This document shows, one piece after another, positions 3,101-61,311 of a DNA stretch of 64,000 bases. Under the pieces are notes generated by a model. It did no database searches. It was not told where the DNA came from and saw only the letters and a program-made list of their open reading frames with translations. The translations under genes were made by a program, and so were the position numbers. The stretch's first letter is position 1. Each line of letters starts with the position of its first letter. The stretch is from Nereocystis luetkeana (taxonomy: Eukaryota; Sar; Phaeophyceae; Laminariales; Laminariaceae), in the NCBI GenBank assembly GCA_031213475.1, contig JARUPZ010000007.1, forward strand, positions 3,963,586-4,027,585, read 5' to 3'.

Positions 3101-6100
3101 ACCGCACGTCAAGCCATGCAACGGCACGTCAAGCCATGCAACGGCACGCCAAGTCACGCAAACAGCAAGTTAAGTCATGTAGCGGCACGCGAAGTCGCGG
3201 CACGTCACATCAAGTCGCATCACGCCACGTCAAGCCACGTAACGGTACGTTCAGTTTTGGTACTGCACGTCAAGCCAATACGAGTACACGGCGCCAACTA
3301 AAGCAAATCAAAGATGCCTCCAAATTCATAGAAGTCCAGCTAAGTCGTAGTCAAGCCGAATCAAAGCAAGGCCAATTCAAGCCAGTGTAACGTACCAGGT
3401 AAAGGTCAACACTTACACTTTGTCTGATAGTATTTGTCCGAGTCAAACCCTACTCAAACTGTTAATTAGAGCTAAGGAAAGTCAGGTAAAAAAAGACGCA
3501 GCCATAAACACTGGCTCTATACCAGTGGAACCCGGCCGGTCGAATACCCAGCCTCAGCCAATCAGCACAAACCGCGGTGCAGTGTTGCTATTTGGGCCTC
3601 TCACATAGACTTACATACTGTATTCTCCCCTACTTCGGAGCACGCTCTCGGTATATTCTCCCACCTCACAGCCCTCCTCACCCGTAGTTGCCGATCGAGA
3701 AATTAGTTGCTTTTTCCTCGAGGTCTTTGCTTTTTTCGCTTTCTCCCTTTTTTTCGTTTACTGCTCGTTTCTTCGCGAAAATCACACCCATCGCAGCTCA
3801 GCTGATAGTAAATCCAACACGAAAAATATCCCTCATTCACTCCAAGATATATATTTTTTCAAGAGTCGAAAAAAAAGTCGAGATACGGATCTTCGAAACT
3901 GGTGTCAGAATAGAAAATCTGTCAAAACCGAGCGAGAAAGCCGCTTCTACACTAAATTCGAGACAAATAGTCCGAATTTTCCTTTGTAAAGCGAAGTAAA
4001 AAAGGATTTTCGGAACTCGAATCTTAATCGAAACCAGCTAAAACCAATACCTGGTAGATCGAAACTGAGCTAAATAAAGCAGGTAGTCCTACCACACGTA
4101 CTTGGAGATAAACGGTATTTTCTCCTACCATGCAGTATAACAAAAAAGGCACAAATCACACTCAACTCAGGTCAGGTCAGGCCAGATCAGCGGCGCAGCG
4201 CTAGCTCAGCAGCGCAGCGCAGCTCAGCTCAGCTTAGCAGGACAGCAGTAGCTTTCGCACATACCAGGTATGTATATGTCATGTACATATACGAAATACC
4301 ACGTAAGAGTAAGGATACAAGAAAGCAAGGCGCACCCAGCTCAGCCCATCCCACGCAGCAGCGCAGTGCAGCGCCATGCGGTGCTGTACCGTGCTGTGCT
4401 CGTTCTTTCGTCCATATCAAAAGAGTGCGTACGCGCATACCGTACGTGCATGCGGCGTCGGGGTTGTTTTCTTACAGCATGGAGCTATTGGCATTTGCAA
4501 GTCGCCTGTTCGCACCTACAGTAGACGTTTGGGCCATCTATCTATATACCTATATATCTATCCATCTGTTGCGCTCCATTCTTCCTTGTGAGCGAGCTTA
4601 GCGTGCGGAACCGCCCGCTACGCGAAGCGCCTCGTACACGTTTACCTAAATCAACACCAACCAATTGGTACTGTAGCTATGTATCAAACGCGTTATCCCA
4701 CCCTGTCCAAGTCGACACCGCAGACATGCATGGTGCGAATCTGCCGAAACCTTGGCCGCATTCAAAATACTATGGACGAGGGAGGATGCGCGACAATTCT
4801 GGCGTGCCCACCCCCACCTCCGGGTTAGATCCGCGTGGAAGACTCCGAGATCTGGGTGTGCGAATCTGCAGGAGGCGATTGCCGCAGGAGTGCAGGCGTA
4901 CTTTGAAAAATTCCTCGCCGAAACCGAGAGACTCCTACCGTAGCGATTAACAACCAGAGAGGGTTCTACAAGCACCTCAAGAGTACGGTCCGATTGGAAG
5001 GGGCTAGACAAAGCGAGGGGCGAGCAGTACATGAGGGACGAGGATAGCACGCTGCTGTGGGATAAGGTGCGAATTCGTGAACGATGGTCGGGGTTCTACC
5101 ACAAGCTCTCGAGCACGACATCGCTGAAACTCGATCCCACGATCATCGGCTTCTTGCCACCGCGACCGCTTAAACTATCGCTCGGAGATGAACCATCCAT
5201 GAACGAGACGACGGAAGTTAAGCCCATGTAAAATTGAAAAGCTGCTGGGCCAGATGGCCTGCCTCCCAGCCGAACTCCTAAATCTCAACCACCCCGTATT
5301 CGCCCAGTGCTTTCACAACATCCTTGTCAACGCTTGGGCAACGGGAGAAGCCCCCCAGCAATGTAAAAATGCGACCAGCGAAGGTCCTGAACAAAAAGAA
5401 GGACCGAAGTGGTTGCAACAACTACAGAGGGATCTCGCTTGTTGCCCACCCAGGGCAAAGTGTTGCTGAAAATCGTCGCGTGCGGCCTTAGCAACTACTC
5501 ACTGTGAGACCAAGGAAATACTCTAGGAGGAACAGTGGGGGTTTCCGCCCCGCACGATCAATGATCGATATGCTGTTCGTCGTGCGCCGGTTGCAAGAGC
5601 TCGGACGTCAGAGGAAACTCCCCACCTGTGCATGTGCTTCATCGATCTGCAGAAAGCGTACGACTCCGTCGACCGAGGCCTGCCGTGGGAGGTACTCACA
5701 CGCCCTGGCGTATAAACCAAGATGCTTACAACTATCCGCAATTTCCATGAAGGCGTGCGAGGTCGCGTACGTACGTATGACGGCGAGCACTCGGAATGGT
5801 TTCATGTCACGCAGGGGCTGCGGCAAGGCTACATGCCATCACCATTACTGGTCAAAGCGTTGATCGTTGCTGCGTCACACGTCGTACTGGTACGCTTCGG
5901 CAAAGACGAACCCATCGTCAGAGATTGGGTTCAACTCAATGATGCTGGAGTAGAATGATGCTGGAGTAATCGAAACAGAGGAGCAGGAGCCGTTGGCAGG
6001 CGTGCAGAGGGCTGTGAGGGGCATGTGTGCGCCGATGACGCAGGAATTGTCTCCAAGTCGGCTGAAGGACTCGCTCAAAAGACACGATGACAGTCATCGT

Positions 6101-9100
6101 GACTGTTTTCGTTTTCGAATCAGCAGGCCTCACGGTATCGGAAAAGAAGACAGAGACGATGCTGCTACACACGCCGGACCAGACAACCCTCGCCCCACCG
6201 CTCGTCATCGATTCAGCAGGCCAGAGGTATAAACAGACGGGCAAGCTCTTATACCTCCAAATATAAACAGACGGCCCAGTTCTTACACCTATAAAGGCGG
6301 CACTGTCAACGAAACGCTGACCTCTCGCTCGAAACCGACCGACATATCCGTCTCATGCGGGCATGCCTCCAACGGTTCGGCCCGGGGTTGTATGATAGGA
6401 CGACCGCCCCGCTTAGTCTGAAAATCCGCAGACTGAAGGCCGAGGTGATTGAGACCCTGCTGTACGGGTGTGTGACGTGGACCCTCAGAGCGGAACACTT
6501 TGCCAAGCTCCGAACGGCTCACTACCAAGTTAAAGCCCTTTTGCGAGTCATTGGCTTCCAGCGCCGACTTCGTACCGACCAAACTACTCCCTCGTACGCG
6601 AAGGCCCTCAAAATGACACGTCACGAGAGCATCGAAACGACCATCCGTAAACGGCGGCCGTGGCGCGGCAAAGCAAGGAGCGGACACCCAGCCGGGTGAT
6701 GTTCGGGACGATGGCTGGTGGGGAAAACCCGAGATCTGGCGGGCACTTCAAGGCTTGACATAGATGCATAGTCGAAGACCTTTAGGGAGTTCCGAGCCAC
6801 CGAAGGGGACAGGGGGGGGTAACAGGAGGAATAGACTACAGTATTAAATGGTAAGTGGAACATGTTTAAGCTACTTGGTGCCGTCAACTGCTGCGAGCTG
6901 GTTCGAACGTGATCTTCCTTTCTTCTTTTTTCCTTCTACGCTTATGATCCCCCCCGTGATATATCGTATATTTTATTTCTGTTTATTTCTTGTCCCTATA
7001 GGAAAGGAGCCTTGTTTTGTGGGTGGATGACGAGCCTGCTTTGTTTGTTTTGTATTTTGTATCGTCTGGCGCATCCTGCCCGGGGGTGGGCATGGTTGAC
7101 GAAAGCAGGGAGGAGGCGGCGAACATGCACCACCCGGCTAGAATAGCACTCGCAGGTAGAACCTGCCTACCACCAGGTATGCTACGGCTGCCTGGAGGGT
7201 AATTTCGTATTTTATTCCTGTGCTTCGGTTTTCGCCTGTTGTCGTCATCTCTTATTGCCCTTCGTTCTTGGTTCTGTTTATGTGTGATACCTCCGTTCCC
7301 CTCGCTGCCTCGGCAAGGAATGCTGCGAGGCATGCCCTATCAGGCTTATAGCGAGTGGGGTAGGTCTTTCTGGCGGGTGTAAGGCCGGACTCACCCTCAA
7401 GGAGTGATACCTTCTTGCTGCTGCCTGTGGCCGCGAGGCTCAAGCGGCAGTAGAGTTGGGTCGTACGTGGTGCGTCAGGCACGGAGACCTACGATTCGCG
7501 CGTCTTTTTTAGGCAGCTGCGGCAGAGCAGCAATGCTCAATCGGGGTGTCCGTACGCGGAGGGCAGGCGCCACCACAGGCCACACTACGGCACAGTCTAT
7601 TGCGCCGGTAGGAGGCTGGGTTCGATGACGAGGGAGGAGGGAGACTGAGCGTCGACGTGCGGGGAAGAGACGGATTGACCTCCCCCTGCGCGAGAATTTA
7701 TATTTTTCAGATCAGAACCGCAAGTGCGAGGAGCATTTTGTTTTTCAGGATGACGGAGAAAGGAAATCGACTGGAAGGGAATGGCAACGAGTGCACGCGC
7801 AAAGGAGCGGGTGGATTGGGCCAAGGCGATGAGGCGGCCATGAAGAGCGGCAGGAAGACGGTGCACGGAGACCCATGATCTGCGCGCACACCATCATCAC
7901 GAGAGAAGCGGTCATAGTTTGTTTTTTCCTGGTATTGTTTTTCACGAGGCAGAATAGTATCTACCGGTACTTGTTATTAACGTCGTCACTGGTCTTTGTA
8001 GTTTAACGAGTTGTATACCCTTCATGGGGAATAACCTACGCAATTATCAGGGACGTGGTATCATAACTGTGCTGCACCTTTTTGTGTCAGACAATCCAGG
8101 AAGAGATAGCGATCGTTGATATTCGTGTGGTAGTAAGGTTCGATTGCTCCTTTTTTCACTGCATATCCGCGAGTCTTCACTCTGACAGCACTCCAGATAG
8201 CAGGCAGGTGTGTTCTTCTTTCGTTTTCACGACTACCGTGCGTTTCGTACGGTGCAGGCAGCACTTCAGACAGCATCCGCTGTAGTCAGCAGCCACGAGT
8301 TGGTTAGTGGTGGGAACGGGGGTACTCTATGTTATAGTTGAGAGGATATACCCGTGGCCATGTTAGTTCAGTTTGCACATTGGTTTTAGCTCGTGTGCGC
8401 TTTCTTCGTCTCGTGTACTTTGAGGCAGCCGAATTTTCGTTTTTTTACGTTTTTCGGATCTTCCTAGGGCTCCAGCACCTTTAGTGTGACCACGGACTCC
8501 TTCGTCAGAGAGTTAATGTGAGAACAACAACATATGTGGTGGTATTGTTTCAATCTGGAGTCATCACCGGCCAGTAGTCAATCGCCCAGAGGAAACAATG
8601 GAAAACGCGCGAACGGTTCACGCAGCTTGCAAAGTTGAGTATCGATCGATCTGCCGATCGGTTGAACTCACAGCTGACGTACTCTTTTAGTTTTAAAGAT
8701 GTACTGATATGAATAAAAAAATATAGCCCGCGTCGTTTGTATTATCTGCTCCGCGGATATACTACACGAGACTTTATTTTCCTTTTCTTTTTATTTTGTT
8801 CTTTCGATTTGTTTTTTTGTTTCTTTTGTTTTCTCTCTTTCATAGACTGCTGCTGCTGGGTATGTCGTGCCTGTAGCATCCATTACGATGACATGGCATT
8901 GTCTACTGCTGTGTGTGTCATGCATAGTTTTATTTATGGCCACGGTGGCTTGGTAGGTGGTCCGCGAGCCTATCAAGATCAATTTCGTGGGTTCAAATCC
9001 CACCGAGTGCATGCTCGTAGGGGCTTTTTCTTGCATACGAAGAAATTGATTATTAATAGCGGAAAGCGCGAGAGCGTGAGTTAGCTGCATTCTATGAAAA

Positions 9101-9720
9101 TCGACGAGCAGTGGGAATGCTGAACCCTATGCGCGACAAAAATTAAAGGCACGTACCGGGGGGGAAAAGGGTAAGACACCTGTGACCACGGCTTGTCCAG
9201 AAGGTCGTCGAGGGTAAAAACCTTCTACCTGGTACGAGTTAGGCTGGAAAGTGAAAGTGATGATTAAAAAAAAAAGAAGAGAAAAAAAAAGAGCTTGTAT
9301 CTCTCTACCTAGGGTTGACGAATCGGCAAGGGCATTGGTTGTGCTGGATGTCGACCAGTAGAAATAATAATGGTTTCTGAAGAACATACCTGGTACCTGG
9401 TACAACAAACAAAAAAAAAGAGATACCTGGTATCTGGTACCAGGTAGCTGACAGAGAAGTGGATGTGATCATGAGAGCACTGCCGCTGCTGTACTGCCTG
9501 CATGTAAACAAATCGGGTACCTTCTGGGTACTCGTACAATAGCAAACGCTAAAGGTGCATCGGGAACATGCCCACGAGCGAACACTTGTAACACACACAT
9601 GACGAACGCACGAGACTGAAAGGCAGGCCGGTTGTACTGTGGTCGGAACCCAGCATGCACCCACCGAGCATCCCGCCATTGGTTGTTGATGAACATCTTG
9701 GGTTCAGAAGAAGACGACAT
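72..9720 (-). CDS. Aldehyde dehydrogenase, N-terminal part (three exons; gene runs off the left edge)
   Basis: The three exons join in phase (9720-9665, 2410-2300, 135-72) and encode the start of an NAD(P)-dependent aldehyde dehydrogenase. Visible family features are the N-terminal strand [13 protein letters not shown], then [29 protein letters not shown], and [20 protein letters not shown]. This is the usual order (INN-x-W, NPATGE, AxxD-V-xxAVxAA, R-x3-LR-x-L) and resembles betaine/amino-aldehyde dehydrogenases. Catalytic Cys and Glu would lie beyond the window. Splice sites are GT-AG (donors GTGGGT, GTAAGA, GTGAGG). The first ATG at 9720 is chosen because the upstream open frame has no ATG before a stop at 9919-9921; that leader is rich in Arg, Ser and Ala and could belong to a spliced transit peptide. 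Joining exon 2 to exon 3 gives Lys-Cys where relatives have roughly eight more residues including Trp, so a micro-exon may be missed between 136 and 2299. Intron 1 is 7.25 kb of repeats. The gene is divergent from the transporter. Confidence 0.78.
470..1036. repeat. Diverged direct duplication in ALDH intron 2
   Basis: Two units of roughly 250-290 bases (about 470-715 and 740-1036) share blocks such as CCATCCCATCAA, a TCGGAG-G-CATCCT segment, CGCTCCCCGCC and AAATTTTCG in the same order. No coding signal. The rest of 136-1900 shows nothing recognisable beyond the listed repeats. Confidence 0.5.
1037..1135. mobile_element. MITE2 copy (TTAA-type foldback)
   Basis: Inverted arms GCCGCAGTCCCGTTTTGGGG and CCCCAGAACGGGACTGCGG around a short centre. 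This is one of about ten related hairpins in the window, whose better copies are bounded by TTAA-CCCTTTTAG. Confidence 0.7.
1905..1968 (-). mobile_element. Fragment of a SINE tail
   Basis: CCCACTACGGTTCGTGCCTTGC matches the tail segment also seen at 26.3 kb and 57.87 kb (reverse complement of GCAAGGCACGAACC-type sequence). Too short to classify alone. Confidence 0.4.
2022..2140. repeat. GGTATAATGGTATGGTATA tandem array
   Basis: Imperfect tandem repeats of about 18-20 bases made of ATGGTATGGTATAGGT variants. Simple-sequence DNA just downstream of ALDH exon 2, in intron 2. Confidence 0.75.
2300..2410 (-). CDS. ALDH exon 2
   Basis: Acceptor CAG at 2413-2411 and donor GTAAGA at 2299. The 111 bases give [20 protein letters not shown] and then [16 protein letters not shown], the conserved NPAT and AV-x-AA region of the family. 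It begins in the phase exon 1 leaves and ends two bases into a codon. Confidence 0.8.
2430..3290. repeat. 20-bp minisatellite (CGGCACGTCAAGCCATGCAA)
   Basis: Around 40 units of a 20-base repeat, most regular at 2885-3155, decaying at both ends. It begins 20 bases upstream of ALDH exon 2, inside intron 1. The unit lacks stop codons in one strand, which keeps a 255-codon frame open (2623-3390); its repeat period of 20 residues comes from the DNA period and is not evidence of a gene. Confidence 0.9.
3402..4590. other. Non-coding intronic stretch
   Basis: AT-rich to about 4130, then a CAGCTCAG/CAGCGCAG-rich patch (4160-4250). No exon, tRNA or element could be recognised apart from two TACCWGGTA copies. 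Confidence 0.5.
4590..6840 (+). mobile_element. Decayed LINE (reverse transcriptase ORF2 remnant), family A
   Basis: Broken frames carry, in order, a linker region ([10 protein letters not shown], 5080-5110), GPDGLP (5247), NNYRGI (5417), [20 protein letters not shown] (5530-5590), the [11 protein letters not shown] block of the catalytic core (5645-5675), [15 protein letters not shown] (5808-5850) and, after the active-site region, a C-terminal part [20 protein letters not shown] (6422-6480) and [15 protein letters not shown]. These are the ordered blocks of a non-LTR retrotransposon reverse transcriptase. At least five frame changes and several stops are present, for example stop codons at 4941 and 5229 and a frame change near 5640, so it is inactive. 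The FADD box is lost or scrambled near 5940-6040. It lies in sense orientation to the plus strand, inside ALDH intron 1. Confidence 0.85.
6841..7290. other. Non-coding stretch, nothing recognised
   Basis: T-rich sequence and a G-rich patch; no open frame with family features and no inverted repeat noticed. Confidence 0.4.
7291..8537 (-). repeat. R1 dispersed repeat, copy A
   Basis: About 1.25 kb, nearly identical in reverse complement to 11120-12371 and 19930-21171. In its own sense it opens with GTTGTTGTTCTCACATTAAC and closes with GCGAGGGGAACGGA. A 71-codon frame (8276-8061) is shared by all copies but resembles no family I know. No terminal inverted repeat or clear target duplication is seen; a solo terminal repeat of a larger element or a non-autonomous element are both possible. 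Confidence 0.8.
8937..9285 (+). mobile_element. tRNA-derived SINE, copy 1
   Basis: The head is tRNA-like: A-box TGGCTTGGTAGG and B-box GGGTTCAAATCC spaced as in a tRNA (8946-9005). A body of about 230 bases follows and ends in an A-rich tail (9262-9290). The same unit occurs in reverse at 26738-26411. The pair differs by point changes plus one TACCTGGTA insertion at 9226 in this copy. It lies in ALDH intron 1. Confidence 0.82.
9665..9720 (-). CDS. ALDH exon 1
   Basis: Encodes ATG to ...NNQWRDA plus two bases of an Arg codon. Donor GTGGGT follows at 9664. The frame is open upstream to 9922 without an ATG (phrase GLRAPAISFYATAAALGR), so a longer, spliced N-terminus with a targeting peptide is possible. 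Confidence 0.75.
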
Positions 9721-11113: not shown

Positions 11114-14100
11114 GTGAGTGTTGTTGTTGTTGTTGTTCTCACATTAACTCTCTGACGAAGGAGTCCGTGGTCACACAAAAGGTGCTGGAGCCCAAGGAAG
11201 ATCCGAAAAACGAAAAAAAACGAAAATTCGGCTGCCTCAAAATACACGAGACGAAGAAAGCGCACACGAGCTAAAACTAATGTGCAAACTGAACTAACAT
11301 GGCCACGGGTATATCCTCTCAACTATAACATAGAGTACCCCCGTTCCCACCACTAACCAACTCGTGGCTGCTGACTACAGCGGATGCTGTCTGAAGTGCT
11401 GCCTGCACCGCACGAAACGCACGGTAGTCGTGAAAACGAAAGAAGAACACACCTGCCTGCTATCTGGAGTGCTGTCAGAGTGAAGACTCGCGGATATGCA
11501 GTGAAAAAAGGAGCAATCGAACCTTACTACCACACGAATATCAACGATCGCTATCTCTTCCTGGATTGTCTAACACAAAAAGGTGCAGCACAGTTATGAT
11601 ACCACGTCCCTGATAATTGCGTAGGTTATTCCCCATGAAGGGTATACAACTCGTTAAACTACGAAGACCAGCAGTGACGACGTTAATAACAAGTACCGGT
11701 AGATACTATTCTGCCTCGTGAAAAACAATACCAGGAAAAAAACAAACTATGACCGCTTCTCTCGTGATGATGGTGTGCGCGCAGATCATGGGTCTCCGTG
11801 CACCGTCTTCCTGCCGCTCTTCATGGCCGCCTCGTCGCCTTGGCCCAATACACCCGCCCCTTTGCGCGTGCACTCGTTGCCATTCCCTTCCAGTCGATTT
11901 CCTTTCTCCGTCATCCTGAAAAACAAAATGCTCCTCGCACTTGCGGTTCTGATCTGAAAAATATAAATTCTCGCGCAGGGGGAGGTCAATCCGTCTCTTC
12001 CCCGCACGTCGACGCTCAGTCTCCCTCCTCCCTCGTCGTCGAATCCAGCCTCCTACCGGCGCAATAGACTGTGCCGTAGTGTGGCCTGTGGTGGCGCCTG
12101 CCTCCGCGTACGGACACCCCGATTGAGCATTGCTGCTCTGCCGCAGCTGCCTAAAAAAGACGCGCGAATCGTAGGTCTCCGTGCCTGACGCACCACGTAC
12201 GACCCAACTCTACTGCCGCTTGAGCCTCGCGGCCACAGGCAGCAGCAAGAAGGTATCACTCCTTGAGGGTGAGTCCGGCCTTACACCCGCCAGAAAGACC
12301 TACCCCACTCGTTATAAGCCTGATAGGGCATGCCTCGCAGCATTCCTTGCCGAGGCAGCGAGGGGAACGGAGTGTACGAGGTACCAGGTACACGAGTATG
12401 ACGCCCGTACTGGTAATGGCTGTGGGTGACGCTGTCCGACGCTTGCTGCACGGGCTTGCGGGGGGACGTGCGTTGGGGGGGGGGGGGGGCGCTAGAGAAC
12501 CGCGAAGCTTATTATGCCTCACCAATTCCAAGTTAGTTTGCCCCCCGACACGTTGATTGGTGCAACTCCGAAACCCCTTTGGAAAGCGCACCCTCTATTT
12601 TAATGGTAAATACAATTAATAGATAAATATGAGTGGGATAACTTGTGCTGCACTGAAAGGGTTAGTTGACCTTAACCTCCTAGGAATAGGACTGCAGTCC
12701 CGTTCTGGGGGCAAACCACTCAAGTTCCAAGTAGTTTGTCCCCAAAACGGGACTGCGGTCCTAAAGGGGTTAACCTTCAACCAACCTGTAGGGCAGCACC
12801 CACGTTGTGGGGACGAATGACAGCACTACCTGGAATTTTGATAGGAATCAGCCTCGCAGCGGTGAAAGTGATTGGCAAGTGTGACCGCCATTTATATTAT
12901 TACGTACCTGGTATACACAACACAGCAACACAGCAGTACGAAGATTGCGGGTATTGTAAGCTGTGACCGCTCCGGTAATAGACTCCGCCGTAGCTACTAA
13001 TAACATTAATACTGCTCTGGTATGTATGTACGTTCCGCAATACCACTCTCTCTGTCCCTAAATATAATAATCATTTTCACACTAATATTCAATCAAAACG
13101 GCCCTTGTATTGAGGGACAGAGTGATATGTACAACACTGCGCACCTCGGACAGGTCATGATCTATATATCTGTCTACAGTGCATAGATGCATCTAGTTCC
13201 TCTGACCTGCCGTTGCGAGAGGTTGTGCAGGATCTGTACAGTACATATCCAACCCGGGAAACACGTGCTACTGCTGTAGATCATTCAGATTATAGCGCTC
13301 TCTCACCCGGCAGCATGAGCTAGATCGTACAGATCCAGGGATGTACCTGGCCTACATGAGCTAGATCATCAAGTAGGAATGATCTGTAGATTATCTGCCT
13401 GAGGTGTGTAACATTGGTTGGTTTTAACCCTTTTAGGACCGCAGTTCCGTCTTTGGGGACAAACCAGTCAAAGTATAAGTGGGTTGTCCCCAAAACGGGA
13501 CTGCGGTTTGCCCCAAAAGGGTTACCAGGTACCAGGTATTAATTAAGCATGCGCTTGCTTGTAATGGTGCCAGGCGCCCCTGGGTTTTGTTTTTATGCTG
13601 CGGAGACGTTGCAACGCTAGTCCAATCGATCGAGTAAAAAGTCGTCAAAAACCAGCCGCGCTCGAGAAGGTCGTCCGCTTGATCGTGCCGCCGAAGGCGC
13701 CCCGGCTCCTGGAGAGGCGACGTAACCGTAGCTACGAACAGCTTCTGGCGCCGCAAAGCCCCCCGCGACGAAAATGAATGTACTGCTGTAGTTGGCTATT
13801 TCGTTTTGATCTCGGCTACGTCGGTGAATCGGCTCTGTCGACTGGACGACTACTGCTGTAAAACTCTCGCGACACACGGCGCTTTCTGTGATCAGTCACG
13901 GCCTGGGAGCGACCCTGGACATGACCCCGGTTTTTCCTGCACGCTGGCGAGTGGCGATAGGGCGCACACGGTTCACACCGTGCGCCTGCCCGATGTCACT
14001 GCAACGATGCAACGGTGGCCCCGCCATCTATAGAAGTTATGCTTTCCGTGTTTAGGCCGAGTCGGGTGAATTTCCCAGAAATGCGAAATACTAAGCTGTG

Positions 14101-15720
14101 AACTGGGAATTTCCCCGCGAAATGAGAAAAACGAAAGTCCGAGTGGACAAAGACCCGATTATAGAGTGCCATTTTTTGTTTTGCTATCAATAGCCGTTTC
14201 GTGATTGTCCGTCGACTCCACCAACCGCAGCAAGTTTGAGCGGCAGCTCATCGTAAACACCTGGTACCTGGTACCAGGTAGGGTGTTTGTAGTGATCTCC
14301 CGATCTGGTTGGGTTTTTAGAGTATTACGGGGGACCATAGTTGACAGGACCTATGGTATGCATAAAACCTTTCCATTCATCCATTTTTACTAATAACATT
14401 TGGTCCTATTAACTATGGTCCCCCGTAATAGTTGTTGCCGACGAACCGTGAGGAGATGATTGGTTAAAGCGTCGAAACAGGAGACTCAGAACTCAGAAGT
14501 ATTGCTCCGTTTGCCAACCAACCCACTGAGTTTAACCCAACCCAAGAATACCTTGGAGGTTAAAAAGCGTCATTCTGGTCACTTTTTTCCCACAGCAATT
14601 AGTTTTTTGTGAGCTAGGACTGCTATCTTGTTGTAATACCACTCTGTCCAATGTTATGACCGATTTCACATTTAAATCGAATAAAAACGGACATAAGGAA
14701 CGATTTCCTATTAAAATCAAGTAAAAAAGGTCCATGCATACTTCAGGACAGAGTGGTATGTATTAATAACAGACTACGAGAAACCCAACGTAACCAGATT
14801 CTCCGCAAAACATCCTATTTCTGGTATGACCGTTACCCCAGGGCAGGCGTCGCACTTTGACCACTTCTAGGATGAATCATGGTATAACCCTTTTAGATCG
14901 CAGTCCCGTTTTGGGGGACAAACCAGTCAAATTATAAGTATTTTGTCACCAAAACGGGACTGCGGTCCTAAAAGAGCTGACTCACACCCACATACGTAAT
15001 AATCCGATTTGTTTTTTTTTGTTTTTATTGCGGAGCGAGTGCGTGTTTCTTATTTTGACGACGGCAACAAAAATAGGGTGCCCAAAAAAATGCCTGAAGC
15101 CTCCCTTTTGGCGGACGACTGCGCAGCGGTGCGCAGTAGTTTAAAAAACAGTATGACCGCCTGGCGCGCGGGGGGGGGGTGTCAACAGGGAAATACGTAA
15201 TCAGAACACAATCAACATCATTTCGTGTCTCTTTTTTTGTTGCCTTCCTCCAACGCACACCATGTTATTTCCTGCCATTCCAGCAACGCACTAAAGTTGA
15301 CGACAGTTGTGAATACCCTGCTGCGCGAGCTCCTAGCGACAGATATACACTATCTTTCGCCGTCTCTGCTTGTTCTTCATTCCCCCGTCTGCTTCTTTTC
15401 CGCCTGCGGTTTTATTTCTTCCACGCACACCCTCCCGCTTCCTTCGTTTTTGTTTTCGTTTTTGTCTTCCTTGGTCGGCTGTTTTTGTTTTTTTTTCTCT
15501 TGTTTTTATTTTTGCTTTTCCGTGTCTGCTCCGCCGGCCGTGGTTGTGCTTGAAACAGACGTGCAGAATTTCGACGCGGCGACCACGGAGGCGACCGTGA
15601 AGGAGTTCATGAACATCGGCCTCGGCTTCGACGAGACGCAGTACGGTGAGCACGCACGCACGCACGCGACGCTGCGCTGCTCTGCGCCGAGCGCTTCTCC
15701 CAGTATGAGGCCTGCTGCTG

Positions 15721-21359: not shown

Positions 21360-24300
21360 TGGTGGCGGCGGCAGCAACGACAACAGCAACAGCACAGCAT
21401 CAGCAGCAGCAGCAGCAGCAGGAGAACACACCAGGCAAGGGCCAGCGTCGACGTACGCCCGGCTCGTCGGTCTGTGACCCTTGAGCTCTCCGTGCACTAG
21501 CTCGATTGTTGTGTGTTTCCTGATTCCCGAACGCGGGTTTCGGTTTCGATTTTGCTTCCAACACGAAAATTCTGCGCCTGACATCACCAACACGAGCTAC
21601 CACTGCTACCACTGCCGTGTGCTGGTAGCAGGGGTGCCACCACTACATGTACTAATGCTGTACCAGTACGATATCCACGGCAGAGCTTCTCCGTCCCCTC
21701 ATCAGCAGGAGGTTGGGTCTGACAATAGCACCTGCCGCATGTCTTGGGGGACACGGCCCAAACGTTGCTGTGGACGGACACATTCTGCCTGTAGAGTTGT
21801 GGGCATAACTCGGCAGAACTCTTGATTGTGAATCAAAAAAAAAAAAAACAAGAAAACATTGATGGTATTTTTTTTCACGTGCCGATTCTGTTTTTAAAAC
21901 ATGGTCCAGCCTCTATTATAGTAACACACGTTGCCGCGCCTCGCTCGATCAACTCTGAACGAGTCACAACCACACCAACAGCACGAGAAGGGTTTGTTCG
22001 TTTTGTGTGCGTGCACAGAGCCCGCCGGGGCTGGGATTGGTGCTGTGTGCATTGAGCGCGGGGAAAACACAGCGTTGAATCACACACGCAAACACACAAA
22101 AACACGTTCACAGAGAAACTAGCAACAAGGCACCTTACGCTCGTATGATCCATCACCAAGAGTTTTTTTTTCCCTTGCAGGTCGAGAAAAAAAGACTCGC
22201 GCTTCGCGCTCGCGCGCCTCATTACTAGGGTATATACTCTGGGGTACCCGGGTATCAAACCCAGTTGTTGCGGTCATAGTCTGGTAGGCGCCCGGGTACC
22301 CCGCGGTGCACTTGGGTTGGTACCCGGGTACCCCGTAGCCATGCTCGAAGTTTTATCAAGGGGGTGTCTGCAGTAGTAGGGTACACACTCGGGTATCAAA
22401 CCTAGTTGTTGTGGTCATAGTAGGATAGGCACCCGGGTACCCCCCGGTACACTTGAGTTGGTACCCGGGTACCTCCCGAGTACACTGGGGTAGGTATCCG
22501 GGTACCCCCCGGGTATACCGGGGTAGGTACCCGGGTACCTCCCGAGTACACTGGAGTAGGTATCCGGGTATCCCCCGAGTATACCGGAGTAGGTACCCGG
22601 GTACCCCCCGAGTGCACATGGCTAGGCACCCGAGTACCCCCCCGAGTACACTGGGGTTGCTACCCGGGAACCCCCCGAGTACACACGGGTAGGCACCTGG
22701 GTACCCCCCGAGTACACACGAATAGGTACCGGGGTACTCTCCGCGTACGTACCCTACAGACCACCACCCCTGAGCACTTTTGTTGCTTTTGCTCGCTCGT
22801 CAGCGTTTGTTGCCGATCGCTTTCGCCCGTGATCCGCCCCCCTCCGCACCCCGCCCTCCCCCCCCGGGCGTCCTGAGCTGAGCAGACACCGGCGGCGTAC
22901 ACGATGATAAGCGACCTCTTCCCGGCGTCCTCTCGTGGGACCGCCAACTCCATTTACTCGTCTGGGGTGTACCTGGGGGGAGCGTTGGCGAGCTTGTCTC
23001 TGCTCCTCAACGGTAAGCCGACCCCGCTTGTGTGTTCCTTCCGCCGGATTTGCTCGTACCCTATTGGTGTGTGTCTTGTTGGGTTTGATTATCTATTTGC
23101 GGGTTGGGCTGTGCCCCGAGTGGGATGGGGAGGGGGGTGGGAGGGGGGGGGCGCACTCATTTTGTTGCTTGCCTTAGTCATTGGACCATTGACCACGCAT
23201 CCCTTTCGAGACGGAGCAATGGGGGGGGGGGGGGGGGGACTGCTCTCATGAATAGCGTTGATATGCGTGGGCGACTCATGCGCTGGTTTGTTTGTTTTTT
23301 TTCCGATGTCTGCTTAATGTTGTAGCCTCCCACATTTCATACGATGTACTACGTATAATATATGTACTTTTGTTGAGTACCCAGAGGATGTATACCTACA
23401 TACTCGTTCAGCATCCATAGGGATGTGCTGTTACACGTGATCGTTCGGAGGCGTAGTCGCCTCTTGATAGTGAGTACCGAGGTTTTGTGCTTAGCGCCTA
23501 AAGCCGACCCTACAACCCGAACCCGAACCCGAACCCGAACCCCATGCCAGTGATCGGTGCTAGGATGCTGTGCTCGGTAAGACTCTAGGTTGGTCCGACC
23601 GGCTTCGATTGCTGTGCTTGGAAAGATTCCTTTTGGTTGATTCGGCTCGCTCGGGATGCTGTGGCCTGGAAGTGACTCGAGGTTGACTTGAGAACCGCGT
23701 ACAATTTGCCCCATGGGTAGCAAACCAGACCGCGCAAATACCTACCCTCGTACGAGGTACCTGGTATACCTTTTGGAAGATTCGCTATGAGCAGGCGACC
23801 ACTGCCTGATCGTTGAGTATCTGGCATCTCTCTAGTTCGAATGGCTGCGAAGGAATGCATGTTGTGCCGCGTGAAAATAGCATCAGTGTTGTAGGTAAAT
23901 GGCGTTGGAGCCGTTTTCGACTGTGCCCCCCACCCCCACCCCCCGCCTTTGGTTTTTGGCGGTCACCACGGCTGGTGGCCGAGTAGATCATTTTTGTGCG
24001 GGGAGAACCTTCCCTCCGCACAAAGGGGATGATCGTATCGCGTAGTATGTATATGGTAAAGCACCCACGAGGCAGGTCCATAGTACACCCATCGCTGTCT
24101 CTGGAACTGACCGCACCAGGAATTAAACAAATTCACTGACGCTGTCACCCATACGCAAGAAAATCCGCGTCGAACGCGGTTTTTAGTAGGATGCAGCTCA
24201 CCCTTCATGCGGCTCGCCCAACACCTCACGGCGCTTCGCGCTTGGTGCGAGCCATGTCTGCTTGATCGGTGAAAATCCGACGTGCTCCGTCCCGGCATTG

Positions 24301-40111: not shown

Positions 40112-40144
40112 CAGGTAAATCACAGCCCTGTATTATACCTGGTA

Positions 40145-40559: not shown

Positions 40560-40700
40560 CATCAACCGACGACCAGGTATATATAATACCGAAGGCACAC
40601 TATGAGTAAGATACCAGGTACATCAATAAGATACTATTGATACTATACCTGGTATATAATACCGAAGGCACACTATGAGTAAGATACCAGGTACATCAAT
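40560..40700. repeat. Tandem duplication of 70 bases
   Basis: ATATAATACCGAAGGCACAC then TATGAGTAAGATACCAGGTA and CATCAATAAGATACTA appear twice (40581-40637 and 40653-40709). Confidence 0.85.
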
Positions 40701-42121: not shown

Positions 42122-43803
42122 GGGTGCGGCCGTAGTTGCACCGCGCAGTCGCGGGAAGTGAGTCGGGGAGATGATCGTGCCGTGCTGGTGTACTGCTGCT
42201 ACGACGCAAGCAGTAGATGGGCTCGATTAATTTTATCAATGGTTCCCTGCGGTTCAGCGCGTGTGTGTACAGTAGTACCCGGCTCCAAGCAGTAGCAGCT
42301 GTACAAGCAGTAGCAGCACGTATGGCAGTAGTAGTGGTATTAATAGTAGGTAAGTAAGGGTGGTCCGCAGTCAGTCGTGGCCTTTTCCGCGTGATCTCTG
42401 GTAGCGAAATCAGTACGACAAGAAAACAGCGAGTCGCCTTATCGCTCTGTTCCTCCTCCTCCTGCTCCCGTTATTGTTGTCGTCGTTCCGCGCGACGGGG
42501 GGTCGGGGGGGGGGGGGGGGGGCGTCATCGTCATCGTGAAAGGAATAATGGATCATGCAGTACGTACGACACATACCTGGCACCAAACACCTCCCGCGTA
42601 AACTATGTACATACCAGGTACGTACCTCGAAGAAGTATGCAATTAATTCGAGCGTCCCGTTGAGGGGGGCATGTAGCATGTATGACACATCCACCGCAAG
42701 CAGAGAGTGCTACGTACCAACACGGCTCCTACCAGGTACCAGGTGCAGCAGGCAGCGAGGAGTTACTACTGTAGCAGGTGGTGCTTGGTACCTCTGGTAG
42801 CCCGGTACTATCAATACGACGTGGATACGTGTACGTACGCAGGTCCGATGGGCGAAGGTCACCAAGTAAGTCGTCGTTGCATTATTTTGTGCCTTCGTTA
42901 CATCACATCATACAACAGTACGCTGGTATATATATGCCACAGCCACAAGAAACTATTAATATTAATAAGTAAAACACAGATAGATCGTGACGCGGAAGAT
43001 GCAGCAGCAGCCTTATGTACAGCAGTACCGGATATTATATATTATCATGTGTGTGGGCACGGCAGGGTGGAAGTGTGGAGTGTGGGCGGGTTGGGTCGGA
43101 CGGGAAAAAAAAAAACGCTACGAGTGCCTACAACTATTAATATTAATAACTGGTACCAGCTACCAGCTATATGGTACGATTCCGAACAAGCACTACGAAT
43201 CAGTGGGCATTTAAATTATCCTACGCTCGTTCTATTCATGTTGTATCTGCTGCTATTTACCTGGTACAACCAGTATACACTTCTCCAAGCATGCAAAGGA
43301 GGAGGAAAAGCGGTGTTGGTGATGGATGCCACTGCTGCTGCTGCTGTTGCCGCTACGATTGCTGGATTGTTGCAATTAATTATTTATTTTACACCAGGTA
43401 CCTTGGTATTTAAATAATCAAAACGTACGTATCTCGTTCTTTTGTTTAATAATAAAGCGGCAACCACCTATTACATAGTCTTCCAAGAAAGACGAGAAAA
43501 CCCACATCAGAAAAAAAAAAAGATCCTATAAAAAGAACACCATACGCGAAATACCTGGGACAAAATACCAGAGGCATGTTTTTATAGGTACCAGGTCTCA
43601 GATCCAGGGTGGTTGTAATGGTACGAGTGCCAACCTGTTGGCTACGGATACCATGGCTGCGAATACCCCATGGCTCAGGCTCTGCTTGCTGGTGAACTCA
43701 CTACTACTGCTTACTCGTACCTGCTTTCTGTTGGTGCTACTTGTAGTCTACCACAGACCAGGTATAATATGAGAAGATGAACGGGCGTGTACAGCAGTTA
43801 TTA
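42122..43803. other. Upstream flank of the ankyrin gene
   Basis: Contains GCAGTAG-type triplet patches, a G18 run (42506-42523) and several nonamers. No promoter element is identified and no gene recognised. Confidence 0.45.
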
Positions 43804-43921
43804 CTATTACGAGGGACCATACCAGGTAGTTAATATGACCAAATATTGTTGATAAAAATGGTTAAATATATAGGTTTTTATCTTCACCATAGGTCCTATT
43901 AACTATGGTCCCCCGTAATAG
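43804..43921 (+). mobile_element. MITE1 copy with a nonamer insertion
   Basis: GACCATAGTTAATA reads GACCATACCAGGTAGTTAATA; both terminal repeats are otherwise intact. Confidence 0.9.
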
Positions 43922-46236: not shown

Positions 46237-46354
46237 TATTACGGGGGACCATAGTAAATAGGACCGAATATTTCTAATAAAAAAATCGAAATATACCTGG
46301 TATAGTTTTTTTTGTGTGTACCGTAGGTCCTATTTAATATGGTCCCCCGTAATA
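46237..46354 (+). mobile_element. MITE1 copy with a nonamer insertion
   Basis: AAATATATAGGTTTTT reads AAATATACCTGGTATAGTTTTT. Confidence 0.9.
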
Positions 46355-46795: not shown

Positions 46796-46839
46796 AATCC
46801 GACCAGTACCTGGTAAGTCGCATCCAAGCTCCATCCCCA

Positions 46840-47660: not shown

Positions 47661-47729
47661 TCAATCAGTAGATTACTACCACCAGTACTGCAGTATATTA
47701 CTACTACCGTCAGTACATATACCAGGTAG

Positions 47730-51589: not shown

Positions 51590-51795
51590 ATATATGACTA
51601 CGATATGTATGTAAATATATATTCTCGTATATATATAGCTGGTATATATTTGTATGATACCACTCCTTTACACTATAACCGCCTCCTAGTCGCGTAGATA
51701 TGATAACGATATGTGTGTATATATATGTATACCTGGTATATATATTTGTATGCTACCCCTCCTATACACTATAACCGCCTCCTCTTCGTTTCGGT
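51590..51795. repeat. Tandem duplication of about 110 bases
   Basis: ATGA-ACGATATGT, TATATATTTGTATG and ACACTATAACCGCCTCCT occur twice. The second unit contains TATACCTGGTATATA where the first has TATAGCTGGTATATA, so this is not a clean filled/empty pair. Confidence 0.75.
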
Positions 51796-52493
51796 CTTTT
51801 TAGTGATCGTGGTTGTGTTTGTGGTGTGACTATCTTTACGATCGGGGTTCGTGATAATCCGTGTTTTTGCTCTTGTCATGCGTATATATAGTTGTTGTTT
51901 TTTTTCATGCGTCAGAGTCCTCTTCTAGCTCCTCCGCCTTGTGTTTCCATCGAGCTGCCTGTCATGTTTTCCTTTTTCCGACCACTATCTCCACCCTTAC
52001 TTATGCAGACACCCGCGTCCTCCAACCCGAGTCCTACCTCGTACGTACCTGGTACGATTTTGGAGTGCTCGCTGTGTTTCGTCACCCTCACAAGGGAGTC
52101 TGTCTCTCCTGGCCCGCACATGATGCGCTTCCCGAAGTTTTTGGGGTCACCCCTCTCTAGAGCGTGGCGTCTTCCCGAAATACAGGGCTTGCTTCCCATG
52201 TTTTCCGGAATCCCCATCCGAACTCATGAGGCAGTTAGTTGGGCTTGCAATCGTTAGCCTGCTATATTTACGTTTCCAGCTGTCTCGGTATCCAGGTATG
52301 AAATAGCTGTTGTTGGGCGCGGCCCATCTCGGTTGCGACGTTTTCCGCTCGTTCCACCTGCTGCTCTCCGCTCGAAAACATCACCCTCTCTTGTCTAACT
52401 CTATTGCTGTACTGAAACGCTGCATGTATTCCTCGTAGCAACCTCACGAGCGCCGCCGATTTGAGCGTCCTCCTTCCCCCCCCCCCCCCTCCC

Positions 52494-53190: not shown

Positions 53191-53307
53191 TATTACGGGG
53201 GACCATAGTAACTGGAACCAAATATTGTTAGTGAAAAAAATATAAATATATACCAGGTATGTTTTTGTGTGTACCATAGGTCCTATTTAATATAGCCCCC
53301 CGTAATA
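53191..53307 (+). mobile_element. MITE1 copy with a nonamer insertion
   Basis: ATATATAGGTTTTTG reads ATATATACCAGGTATGTTTTTG. Confidence 0.9.
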
Positions 53308-53511: not shown

Positions 53512-53661
53512 GGGGGAAGGGGGGGGGGGCGTACTTATTCGTTGCTTGCCTTAAGTCATATGACAATTAACCACGCATCACTTTCGTACCATCAGGGTTC
53601 CTAATAGAGACACCTCCAACATGTGGGCACTCACTACCAGGTACGTTGTTTCCTTATATTT
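53512..53661 (-). mobile_element. LINE-B 3' fragment with a nonamer insertion
   Basis: G run, GCGTACTTATTCGTTGCTTG, CACCTCCAACATGTGGGC, then CACTACCAGGTACGTTG, where other copies have CATTACGTTG or CATGACGTTG. First member of a same-orientation stack. Confidence 0.82.
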
Positions 53662-56795: not shown

Positions 56796-57279
56796 GGTGG
56801 GGGGAGAGAGGGGGGTTCTTCCTCCTGAACGGAGGTACAGCGAGGGTGCAGTCCTGAAGAGCTTAACGTAAAAACACAATGGCTGCGATATTAAGGCTTA
56901 TGAACGAATATGATGGTTACTGACAAGTACCATCTCTAACATGCGAGAACGCCACAAGAAAAATATACCCGGTATCATACCCTGGTATGGAACACGCATG
57001 CACGGCACGATGGCTTAATAATGCAGAAAAGAGCGGCTGCAGCAACGCTATAAGAACAAGAGACGGAAAGAAAACAGCGCGATGGCTTCACAAGGAAGGG
57101 TAAAAAATAACGGTTGCAGCAACGCCTAAATTTTAAAAGAAGAAGACAAGAAGAGATGGAAGGCACAGCAAGGCAACAAGGAGGAAGGACCAAGTCTCGT
57201 CTTCGGCCTAGGCCCTCTACCGCTCGAAACGGAGGCATAAGGACCCTGAAAAAGGTTCCCCCCTTCGGCGGGGTGACTG
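56796..57279. other. Stretch without recognised feature
   Basis: AAAG-rich and CAACG motifs repeated twice (57020-57060 and 57100-57130); no gene. Confidence 0.4.
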
Positions 57280-57925: not shown

Positions 57926-59319
57926 GTAAGGAAAAACATACATACATTAAAAAAAAAGCTCCTGCAACCAAAGAAAAAGTAAGTGCTTACTACTGCAGCC
58001 ACTGCAGGCAAAAGTAGCCGTGTAAATAACACCGACCAGCCCAGATGACTCTATTATAGTTGTGTTGCTCAAACTGTAGTTCGTCACGGACGCCTTCAGG
58101 CTTTGGGCGGAAGCATGTAAAACTAGTATACGGGCCGTTATTTGTTATTTTTCTTCGTAATATACATATCACCCAACGGTCCTAACGATTCCGTCCCGAT
58201 TTTTTCTTGTACATACAGACGGCACAGTCAGTATCCACACAGGATACCTTGAGGACACACCGCCATATTCTCTCCTGTGCTTGTACACGCTGTGGGGTTT
58301 CTGTCAGCAATCATGAAATAATGCTGTCCGTCGGTCCATCCGTCCGTCATACATACATACCTGGTACATACATACGTACATACATCCATACATCCATAGA
58401 TACCCTAGGCCTCAGGCGTGTGTCACAACGCTCAATTCAACATAAAAAACGGGGGGGGGAAGCAGGGAGGGGTTGTCAGGGACTGAATTTCTCGCTCGAG
58501 AACGAACGGGTGCGTTCTGTTTTCTACACTACCAGGTACCTGGTATTAAATCAACTACTACTGCTGCTGTTGTACTACAGCAACTGCTCCAGCATCACAG
58601 ACAGACACCGTCTCTCCCGAGAGCCTGTGATTTTTCCTGACAAATCTCATCCCGGCCTTTCTTTACGTATTATTATCATTCAATTTGGTTGTTGTTTCCA
58701 TTGTGACCCATGTTATATACCCCAGGCGGTATAGGCGTCTGTCTGTCTGCTGTACGAGTACTATTTCTTCGAAGTAACTGCTGTATGTAAGCAGCTCCTC
58801 CCTCCAACACCGTGTGGTAAGAAATATAAGTACTACCACACCCGCGCGTCTTCCTTGCTATTAATAGAGTGAGTGACGATGATGCAATGGCCCGTCCGGG
58901 GGGATGAGAGTGATGATGATGCAGATGATGATGACGATGATGCAGCTTTCTGTCGCATCCAATCTTTTATCGGTGGTGGTGGTGGTGGTGGTGGTGGTGC
59001 CTAGTAGTGTGGTTTCTCCCACAGACGGAACTTCTTCTTCCACACCAAGAAAAATCTTCCAGGAACAAACTATTGTTATACTCCTATTCCTATCAACCAC
59101 TTTGTTTGGGACCGCGAGATCTATAGAGAGCAAAACATGGATATAATATGTGTGTATACGTACCGTACGTATACTCAAAGTACTGCTGAAAACAAAACCA
59201 CAAAGATGTCAGGAGACAGCATCATCACTTTCAACCCCTTGACAGACAGCAACTTTTTGCCTCGACATGCTGCCTTGACTAATACCAAAAACACGAACTG
59301 CTGGGTTTTATTTATTATA
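57926..59319. other. Stretch without recognised gene
   Basis: ACATAC and ATGATG simple sequence (58340-58395, 58905-58945), (GGT)n at 58973-58999. No element of the listed families. Confidence 0.45.
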
Positions 59320-59412
59320 TTAACCCTTTTAGAACCGCAGTCCCGTTCAGGGGACAAACCAGTCAAATTTCAAGTATTTTTGTCCCCAGACGGGACTGCG
59401 GTTCTAAAGGGT
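59320..59412. mobile_element. MITE2 copy
   Basis: TTAACCCTTTTAGAACCGCA ... GGACTGCGGTTCTAAAGGG. Confidence 0.85.
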
Positions 59413-60184: not shown

Positions 60185-60542
60185 CCTGGTAATAATAATA
60201 CTGCCAAGATCTTAGAGGGGTATACGTAGTGCGCTATAGAAATAAGTCGTCGTGCTTCTTGGGTGAAGAGGAACGAAACGTCTGTATTAGGTTCTCCCCC
60301 AAGCAGAGAGAGGGTGTGAATGATATATCGGGTTTTGTGCGTATACCTAGCTATACCCATGCATGGCTGTTTGCTGTCGATATATACGTACGCGTGTGGA
60401 AACACCGCCTACAGCAGGGGGCGCTCTCGCAGGTAAGAAACAAAACATTATCAGTAGTACGTGAAGAAAAAGAGGCTCTCAGATCGGCAAAATCAGAAAA
60501 TTGGCTTGAGAAACACGGCGGGACCAACTCTACTACCTGGTA

Positions 60543-60676: not shown

Positions 60677-60796
60677 TATTATGGGGGAACATAGTAAATA
60701 GGACCAAATATTGTTATTAATACTAAAAATCGGGAAATATATAGGTTTTTGTGTACCAGGTATACCGTAGGTCCTATGTACTATGGTCCCCTGTTA
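60677..60796 (+). mobile_element. MITE1 copy with a nonamer insertion
   Basis: GTATACCGTAGG reads GTACCAGGTATACCGTAGG; terminal repeats slightly diverged (ATTATGGGGGAACATAG). Confidence 0.85.
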
Positions 60797-60825
60797 AGAT
60801 CATGGATAGCGGGACATTTTGTATC

Positions 60826-61072: not shown

Positions 61073-61191
61073 CCCCGTAATACTATTAATACTACCACTA
61101 TACCACTACCATTACTGCCTATACTTCTACTACCACTACGACGTATTACTACTAAATGCTACTACTCCTACTACTACTGCCACTGTTACAC

Positions 61192-61311
61192 TATTACGGG
61201 GGACCATGGTTAATAGAACCAAATATTGCCAGTAAAAATGGTTAAAAATACCAGGTATAGGGTTTCATGTATACCATAGATAGGTCCTATTAACTATGGT
61301 CCCCCGTAATA
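61192..61311 (+). mobile_element. MITE1 copy with a nonamer insertion
   Basis: Contains AAAATACCAGGTATAGGG in place of AAATATATAGG. Confidence 0.88.

What the first reader, a model, noticed from the sequence alone, without database searches (positions are those of the whole stretch)
3393..61257. A palindromic nonamer, TACCWGGTA, is scattered about 100-fold above chance
About 50 exact copies were read by eye in 64 kb; random sequence of this length would hold roughly 0.5 (2 in 4^9 per position). They lie in introns, intergenic DNA and inside other repeats, in no fixed family context, and none was seen in the transporter, ALDH or ankyrin coding exons. The word is not part of one longer repeat: flanks differ everywhere beyond a TA preference. 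A 9-bp unit this frequent and context-free does not match any element class I can name.
Basis: seen in the sequence. Interest (0 to 1): 0.92.

Follow-up and report, generated by a model that had tools for sequence, protein, structure and literature searches.

The report
Genome-wide 7-bp scars at TA sites
A short palindrome, TACC(A/T)GGTA, is scattered through this probable brown-alga genome because something has added the same 7 bases at TA dinucleotides again and again, most likely a jumping gene that leaves an unusually uniform scar each time it moves out.

Summary
TACCWGGTA occurs 52 times in the window (0.39 expected) and 182,395 times in the 465-Mb genome (reversed-word control 1,744).

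It is not part of a longer repeat. In alignments of repeat copies, a plain TA in one copy is TACCWGGTA in another: a precise 7-bp gain (CCWGG plus a duplicated TA). Of 30 distinct five-base TA-bounded insertions in the sample, 23 are exactly CCWGG; no other length from 1 to 13 has a class above 5. Copies under 2% diverged already differ, at 4 distinct sites. Flanks of the empty TA show a symmetric preference (A next to TA; A and W at 6-7 bp) that partly matches the Tc1 target CAYATATRTG.

Best reading: excision footprints of a TA-specific, Tc1/mariner-like transposon with 5-nt overhangs CCAGG. They anneal except for a central A:A mismatch, repaired to A or T. Footprints reused as targets explain the 7-bp tandems.

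The donor was not found, and published footprints are far less uniform, so a more exact scar-making mechanism remains open. The insertion step is well supported; the excision step is inferred.

The parts
2009..2017 (.). TACCTGGTA
3393..3401 (.). TACCAGGTA
4048..4056 (.). TACCTGGTA
4262..4270 (.). TACCAGGTA
9226..9234 (.). TACCTGGTA
9387..9402 (.). double scar TACCTGGTACCTGGTA
   Evidence: two overlapping matches
9424..9432 (.). TACCTGGTA, followed by a one-base-changed unit and 9438
9438..9446 (.). TACCAGGTA
12382..12390 (.). TACCAGGTA
12905..12913 (.). TACCTGGTA
13523..13538 (.). double scar TACCAGGTACCAGGTA
14265..14280 (.). double scar TACCTGGTACCAGGTA, preceded by a third, altered unit
23758..23766 (.). 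TACCTGGTA
24587..24595 (.). TACCTGGTA
26752..26760 (.). TACCAGGTA
27752..27760 (.). TACCTGGTA inside a MITE-like repeat; repeat copies have TA
   Evidence: 27 paralogue alignments, up to 83.8% identity
29812..29820 (.). TACCAGGTA
31774..31782 (.). TACCTGGTA; paralogue has TA
   Evidence: 1 alignment
35015..35023 (.). TACCAGGTA
35248..35256 (.). TACCAGGTA
36864..36879 (.). double scar TACCTGGTACCTGGTA; repeat copies have TA (+14 bp)
36911..36919 (.). TACCAGGTA; repeat copies have TA
37898..37906 (.). TACCAGGTA, sharing its right TA with the 6-nt variant
37905..37914 (-). 6-nt variant TACCAGGGTA (+ strand TACCCTGGTA)
38291..38299 (.). TACCTGGTA
39048..39056 (.). TACCAGGTA
40136..40144 (.). TACCTGGTA
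40272..40280 (.). TACCAGGTA
40455..40463 (.). TACCTGGTA
40612..40620 (.). TACCAGGTA
40646..40654 (.). TACCTGGTA
40685..40693 (.). TACCAGGTA
42612..42620 (.). TACCAGGTA
42730..42738 (.). TACCAGGTA
43258..43266 (.). TACCTGGTA
43820..43828 (.). TACCAGGTA; repeat copies have TA
   Evidence: 31 paralogue alignments
46294..46302 (.). TACCTGGTA; repeat copies have TA
46807..46815 (.). TACCTGGTA
47720..47728 (.). TACCAGGTA
51730..51738 (.). TACCTGGTA
52046..52054 (.). TACCTGGTA
53251..53259 (.). TACCAGGTA; repeat copies have TA
53635..53643 (.). TACCAGGTA; paralogues have TA or a changed TA
56978..56987 (-). 6-nt variant TACCAGGGTA (+ strand TACCCTGGTA)
58358..58366 (.). TACCTGGTA
58530..58545 (.). 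double scar TACCAGGTACCTGGTA
60534..60542 (.). TACCTGGTA
60754..60762 (.). TACCAGGTA; repeat copies have TA
   Evidence: 25 paralogue alignments
61249..61257 (.). TACCAGGTA; repeat copies have TA

Best explanation
Each TACCWGGTA is the excision footprint of a TA-specific cut-and-paste DNA transposon of the Tc1/mariner kind. SHOWN: a 7-bp gain, CCWGG+TA, at a pre-existing TA; its uniformity; its recency; its symmetric target preference. INFERRED: the element inserted at TA, duplicating it; its ends begin CCAGG; the transposase cut the non-transferred strand 5 nt inside the element, leaving 3' overhangs TA-CCAGG on both flanks; these paired CC/GG and GG/CC around one central A:A (or T:T) mismatch, were ligated, and the mismatch was fixed to A or T, giving TACC(A/T)GGTA. 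The new footprint carries two TAs that can be hit again, giving 7-bp overlapping tandems. A few active copies hopping over a long time would be enough; the donor need not be abundant.
For: Genome count 182,395 against control 1,744. TA-to-TACCWGGTA presence/absence between repeat copies: one search lists 24 CCWGG among 31 five-base TA-bounded insertions; one site is listed twice because loci L005 and L006 overlap, so 23 of 30 distinct; 10 window places are supported, one of them a +14-bp double. Direction is gain: one copy has it, up to 31 alignments of other copies do not. Recent: repeat copies under 2% diverged differ by the scar, 8 rows that reduce to 4 distinct sites (L005/L006 against each other and L017). 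Central base almost always A or T (180 of each against 7 C and 7 G, pooled strands). Target preference on non-redundant sites, each side alone: A at -1 (0.53 and 0.42 against 0.30; p 1.8e-5 and 1.4e-4), A at -6 (p 2.4e-3 and 4.1e-4), W at -7 (p 3.5e-7 and 1.2e-6); Y at -2 and A at -3 on pooled flanks. AYA-TA-TRT is the core of the Tc1 target consensus CAYATATRTG (PMC9635669, passages). In Sleeping Beauty, footprints are identical to the 3-nt 3' overhangs (PMC7827188, passages). Tandems 15,917 against about 1,302 expected if hits were random. Minor 6-nt form TACCAGGGTA, 11,422 sites, with the mirror centre nearly absent in the sample (9 against 1; p 0.02), as a CCAGGG... end cut one base deeper would give.
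Against: No donor: in 309 kb no repeat family ends at TA|CCWGG with differing outsides. PF13358 gave 0 matches in the genome (30 candidates scored; its control rang in 3 of 14); PF01359 gave 0, but its control rang nowhere, so that result is empty. PF03184 did not complete. Uniformity is far above published footprints: Stowaway footprints hold 1-4-bp end fragments in several distinct forms (PMC1925063, passages); Tc1/mariner footprints are given as 2-4 bp (PMC7913693, passages); in rice only 8 of 94 putative excisions of DNA transposons were perfect (PMC4423477, passages). The tandem excess (about 12-fold) is larger than the flank preference explains (my hand estimate: about 2-fold on the CCAGG side, about 1.15 on the CCTGG side). 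By hand count of the 59 plus-strand tandems listed, 40 have the same centre and 19 mixed, so part may be slippage. The outer C/G of the Tc1 consensus (-4) is not seen, and the strongest preference (-7) is not part of it. The 2-5% divergence bin held no differences, but also no shared scars (28,537 aligned bases).
Confidence: 0.7

Rival explanations
1. Not an excision scar but a direct micro-insertion: an enzyme (transposase, integrase or end-processing polymerase) adds CCWGG and duplicates TA in one step, without a full element ever residing at the site.
For: Extreme uniformity (TA-CC-X-GG-TA spectrum on pooled strands: 36 hits for no X, 374 for one-base X, 48 for two-base, 14-26 for three to seven bases, 106 for eight bases, which are doubles) and lack of any donor end in 309 kb.
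Against: No enzyme known to me (recalled) does this; the strict A/T centre and the Tc1-like target preference are explained more simply by end annealing after excision.
Confidence: 0.13
2. Scars of programmed, developmentally exact excision of TA-bounded germline elements, the sequenced DNA being after excision, with repair coupled to cutting (works like ciliate IES removal, but leaving 7 bp).
For: Uniform junctions; TA boundaries; scars very numerous and including recent ones.
Against: Scars are polymorphic between repeat copies and one-mismatch forms are in excess, so they look inherited and decaying; brown algae have no known germline/soma nuclear split (recalled); ciliate IES excision leaves a single TA (recalled).
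Confidence: 0.07
3. A functional or selected genomic word (protein-binding or methylation site, like cyanobacterial HIP1) built up by point mutation and selection.
For: Palindromic, very frequent, contains CCWGG.
Against: Where it can be compared it arises by a 7-bp insertion at TA, not by substitution; flank preference lies outside the word.
Confidence: 0.03
4. Simple 7-bp tandem-repeat expansion or fragments of one degenerate repeat family.
For: Overlapping 7-bp tandems exist (15,917); some bacterial contigs hold (TACCTGG)n arrays.
Against: Most copies are single (11 tandems among 128 copies in the unselected sample), in unrelated flanks; repeat copies lack them.
Confidence: 0.02

Closest known systems
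Sleeping Beauty / Tc1-mariner excision footprint (TAC(A/T)GTA type; the exact word is recalled, the 3-nt overhang rule read in passages of PMC7827188)
   Same: TA on both sides, palindromic with a mismatched centre resolved to A or T, derived from 3' overhangs of the element ends, AT-rich palindromic target.
   Different: 5 nt instead of 3 (2-4 in general, PMC7913693 passages); one form dominates instead of a spectrum; 182,395 exact copies; donor not found.
Stowaway/mariner footprints in grasses (PMC1925063, passages)
   Same: Short pieces of the inverted repeats left between duplicated TAs, so total length can be similar; re-insertion into a used TA recorded there.
   Different: Several distinct, asymmetric forms at one locus (1-4-bp fragments); here one symmetric 5-bp form.
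HIP1, highly iterated palindrome of cyanobacteria (PMC4390886, search listing and start of abstract only)
   Same: Short palindrome at very high genome density.
   Different: Here the word arises by insertion at TA; methylation or selection was not tested.
Mariner-Tc1 families of Ectocarpus (PMC12477816, passages)
   Same: 17 Mariner-Tc1 families in a brown alga, most copies non-autonomous: plausible relatives of the donor.
   Different: The words footprint and excision do not occur in that main text; end sequences were not visible.

Membership tests
Excision footprint of a TA-specific (Tc1/mariner-type) transposon | Extra bases bounded by TA on both sides where homologous copies have one TA | tested here: met
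   23 of 30 distinct five-base TA-bounded insertions are CCWGG; +14-bp doubles too
Excision footprint of a TA-specific (Tc1/mariner-type) transposon | Residue is a self-complementary overhang with a mismatch only at the centre | tested here: met
   CCWGG; centre 180 A, 180 T, 7 C, 7 G on pooled strands; that it was an overhang is inferred
Excision footprint of a TA-specific (Tc1/mariner-type) transposon | Symmetric AT-rich target preference around TA | tested here: met
   partial match to CAYATATRTG
Excision footprint of a TA-specific (Tc1/mariner-type) transposon | A donor element with ends TA-CCWGG...CCWGG-TA | tested here: inconclusive
Excision footprint of a TA-specific (Tc1/mariner-type) transposon | Tc1/mariner-type transposase gene in the genome | tested here: inconclusive
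   PF13358 0 matches, PF01359 0 with a silent control, PF03184 not answered
Excision footprint of a TA-specific (Tc1/mariner-type) transposon | Usual heterogeneity of footprints (a usual trait rather than a strictly defining one) | tested here: not met
   near-uniform here against varied forms in print (passages)
MITE or other repeat family | Longer conserved element with terminal inverted repeats | tested here: not met
   nothing conserved beyond the 9 bp except a weak target preference
HIP1-like selected/methylated palindrome | Maintained by methyltransferase or selection rather than created by insertion | tested here: not met
   arises as a 7-bp insertion; methylation itself not testable with these tools

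The most novel reading that the evidence does not exclude
The genome carries one near-uniform scar type at about 180,000 exact places, made by a process that cuts and reseals TA sites far more exactly than the transposon excisions I found described: either a transposon with a 5-nt stagger whose breaks are resealed by a coupled, high-fidelity joining step, or an enzyme that inserts CCWGG+TA directly with no resident element.
Probability: 0.3. Interest if true: 0.9.

Novelty: new variant of a known kind. Interest (0 to 1): 0.74.

Why it matters
If these are excision footprints, one genome holds a datable, base-exact record of well over a hundred thousand transposon departures. Excision is usually hard to see, because elements are counted where they are, not where they were. 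That would let excision rate, repair fidelity, target choice and the age of activity be measured from sequence alone. It would also add a steady source of 7-bp frameshifting insertions to the mutation spectrum. If no element ever sat at these sites, a new kind of insertion enzyme is at work.

Tried and rejected
Longer repeat family: flanks read at all window sites and window repeats catalogued (the 20 largest of at least 60 direct families and 25 of 254 inverted pairs shown); rejected. RNA family: Rfam 0 hits at gathering scores. Known word: 'TACCAGGTA' is in 119 papers; the 20 listed look unrelated by title and start of abstract; 'TACCWGGTA' 0 papers.

Donor hunt in the 309-kb sample: paired TACCWGG/CCWGGTA with matching inner repeats gave nested footprints or matches of chance size (892 pairs; the best, L022:7235-8537, lies in an inverted-repeat region); recurrent ends at TA|CC with different outsides gave tandems of the scar, scars before similar flanks, and low-complexity or simple-repeat sequence; large insertions between paralogues gave no CC...GG ends in what I saw, but that listing was cut. 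TACCAGGG without TA after it: 9 places; L018 and L024 hold oppositely oriented ends, whose inner sequences are not alike by eye.

Other candidate footprint words: TACCGGTA (36 against 7.9) and TACAGTA (103 against 46), pooled strands, are enriched but do not show the same flank preference, so were not added. TACCCGGGTA: all 5 copies of the sample lie in the window.

The 6-nt asymmetry (TACCAGGGTA against TACCTGGGTA) rests on 9 against 1 in the sample plus a genome count for the first word only; the second count did not complete. The 11,422 includes a satellite-like run at 528-bp steps near C1:1305185-1308353.

Species: not named; see the full report. Genome size as a clue to the species: 0 papers.

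Full report
OBSERVATION. TACCWGGTA occurs 52 times in the 64-kb window against 0.39 in shuffles; among 9-mers with at least 14 pooled copies it leads the order-3 Markov ranking (52 against 0.88). The window is G000:C7:3963586-4027585 of a 465,085,209-base genome in 1,987 contigs; genome-wide there are 182,395 copies against 1,744 of the reversed word, one per 2.5 kb. The tandem 16-mer TACCWGGTACCWGGTA occurs 15,917 times against 2. In a 264-kb sample not chosen for the word (window plus 20 stretches) there are 128; the window itself (52) is denser than the 20 stretches (76 in 200 kb).

WHAT IS ADDED. Aligning repeat copies within 309 kb (window, 20 stretches, 15 tandem-selected loci) shows that the word is a gain of exactly 7 bp at a TA. 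Example: window 27752 reads ATAGTTAATACCTGGTAGGACC where other copies of that MITE-like family read ATAGTTAATAGGACC or close to it; 36864 has two units (+14 bp) where other copies have TA. I catalogued small insertions that can be written TA to TA-X-TA: for X of 5 bases one search lists 31, of which 24 are CCAGG or CCTGG; one is counted twice because loci L005 and L006 overlap, so 23 of 30 distinct. For lengths 1, 2, 3, 4, 6, 7 and 9 to 13 there were 10, 11, 9, 15, 3, 2 and 12 sites, with no class above 5; two of the four 12-base ones are exact doubles of CCWGG. The spectrum of TACC-X-GGTA words is dominated by one-base X (374 pooled) and its doubles (106 at eight bases), with a minor two-base class, CT/AG (9 each).

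DIRECTION AND AGE. One copy has the word while up to 31 alignments of other copies have TA, so it is a gain. Copies less than 2% diverged already differ: 8 rows over 10,102 aligned bases, which reduce to 4 distinct sites in L005/L006 (picked for tandems and overlapping each other, so this is not a rate). The 2-5% bin had no differences and no shared scars over 28,537 aligned bases. One-mismatch forms exceed expectation by about 106 (my sum) against 180 exact, so scars also decay: if all were one age this would be some 6% divergence. This estimate is rough and includes the tandem-selected loci.

TARGET PREFERENCE. After removing flanks that are themselves old scars, the empty TA is preferred where A lies at -1 (0.49 against 0.30; T avoided, 0.06 against 0.19), Y at -2, A at -3, A at -6 and W at -7 (0.79 against 0.51), on pooled flanks, n 217. 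With 107 non-redundant sites of 128 and each side tested alone (95 left and 97 right flanks), -1, -6 and -7 stand on both sides; -2 and -4 are significant on the left only, -3 and -8 weakly on the right only. Two other enriched TA words do not share this pattern, so it is not a by-product of asking for TA. AYA-TA-TRT is the core of the Tc1 consensus CAYATATRTG (PMC9635669, passages); the preference at -6/-7 is not in that consensus.

MECHANISM. In Sleeping Beauty the first nick is three nucleotides inside the element, giving three-nucleotide 3' overhangs, and the footprints equal those overhangs (PMC7827188, passages). Scaled to five nucleotides with ends CCAGG, the two flanking overhangs pair at four positions and mismatch at the centre; repair gives A or T. 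That predicts the observed features: TA borders, palindrome, A/T centre, both TAs reusable (tandems), gain of 7 bp. It also makes sense of the 6-nt class: an end CCAGGG cut one base deeper on one side gives TACCAGGGTA or its complement by either repair route, never TACCTGGGTA; the sample has 9 against 1 (p 0.02) and the genome 11,422 of the former against 409 of its reversed word. The count of the latter could not be obtained. All of this paragraph beyond the cited facts is inference.

AGAINST. No donor was seen. PF13358 gave no match; PF01359's silence is uninformative. Published TA-element footprints are more varied: in grasses several forms with 1-4-bp end fragments (PMC1925063, passages), 2-4 bp in general and 0-3 for ZB (PMC7913693, passages); in rice only 8 of 94 putative excisions of DNA transposons left just the duplicated target (PMC4423477, passages). 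The uniformity here is the strangest point. The tandem excess, 15,917 against about 1,302 for random re-hitting, and the same-centre bias (40 of 59 by hand count of the plus-strand rows) suggest extra local re-hitting or some slippage.

CODING. None in 6 open frames totalling 7,194 bp, 3.5 expected (P 0.03): three reverse transcriptase frames, a NADAR frame and a pentapeptide-repeat frame with Pfam support, and the ankyrin frame at 41018-42226 by homology search. Transporter and ALDH exons were not tested.

ORGANISM. Not named. For a reverse transcriptase of the genome (L035), names are given for few of the 120 listed hits: two are Ectocarpus sp. (54% and 60% identity) and one a bacterial MAG (77%, perhaps algal contamination, inference); the best hits (74-77%) are unnamed. 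A NADAR-domain frame resembles the Gypsy-NADAR fusion reported for Ectocarpus (PMC12477816, passages), though its own protein search gave almost only unnamed hits. The ankyrin search gave mixed names. A brown alga other than Ectocarpus is likely but not proven.

LITERATURE. 'TACCWGGTA' is in 0 papers; 'brown algae' + 'transposon' + 'excision footprint' 0; the Ectocarpus TE paper's main text contains neither 'footprint' nor 'excision'. These searches cover only the held open-licence PMC text. I did not read any paper whole.

VERDICT. A real, genome-wide feature; ordinary in kind if it is a footprint, extraordinary in number and uniformity. Insertion at TA: shown. Tc1-like target choice: shown in part. 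Excision of a resident element and the end CCAGG(G): inferred. Donor: unknown.

Noticed in passing
window, e.g. 14385-14439, 18492-18546, 19738-19900, 30255-30309, 46236-46363, 61191-61456: A MITE-like family with ends TATTACGGGGGACCATAG... and TA borders, 18 pieces of one end in the window (family D7); it hosts many of the scars with paralogue evidence.
   Followed up: partly
7291-8532, 11128-12372, 20099-21171: Near-identical (96-100%) inverted arms of over 1 kb: perhaps a large recent element with long inverted arms at 7291-12372 and a partial third copy at 20099-21171.
   Followed up: no
1038-1136, 12676-12774, 13424-13522, 14883-14981, 38303-38401, 50570-50668, 59319-59417: Family with TTTAACCCTTTTAGGACCGCAGTCCCG... 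ends (D16), looks like another short DNA transposon.
   Followed up: no
L028:3901, L022:8736: Two longer TA-bounded gains, CCCTGCCTGG and CCTGCGTCTAGG, absent from paralogues; possibly long footprints that keep more of the donor end.
   Followed up: partly
L089, L095, L122, L133 and other GTDB loci: Bacterial contigs with head-to-tail 7-bp arrays of TACCTGG/TACCAGG and near variants; several GTDB hits come from the same genomes (an Acidimicrobiia bin and a Chitinophaga MAG).
   Followed up: no
309-kb sample: TACAGTA/TACTGTA (103 against 46) and TACATGTA (26 against 10) are enriched on pooled strands, and CTG is the commonest 3-base TA-bounded gain (4 of 9): possible footprints of other TA elements.
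   Followed up: partly
G000:C1:1305185-1308353: TACCAGGGTA recurs at exact 528-bp steps: a satellite-like tandem array.
   Followed up: no
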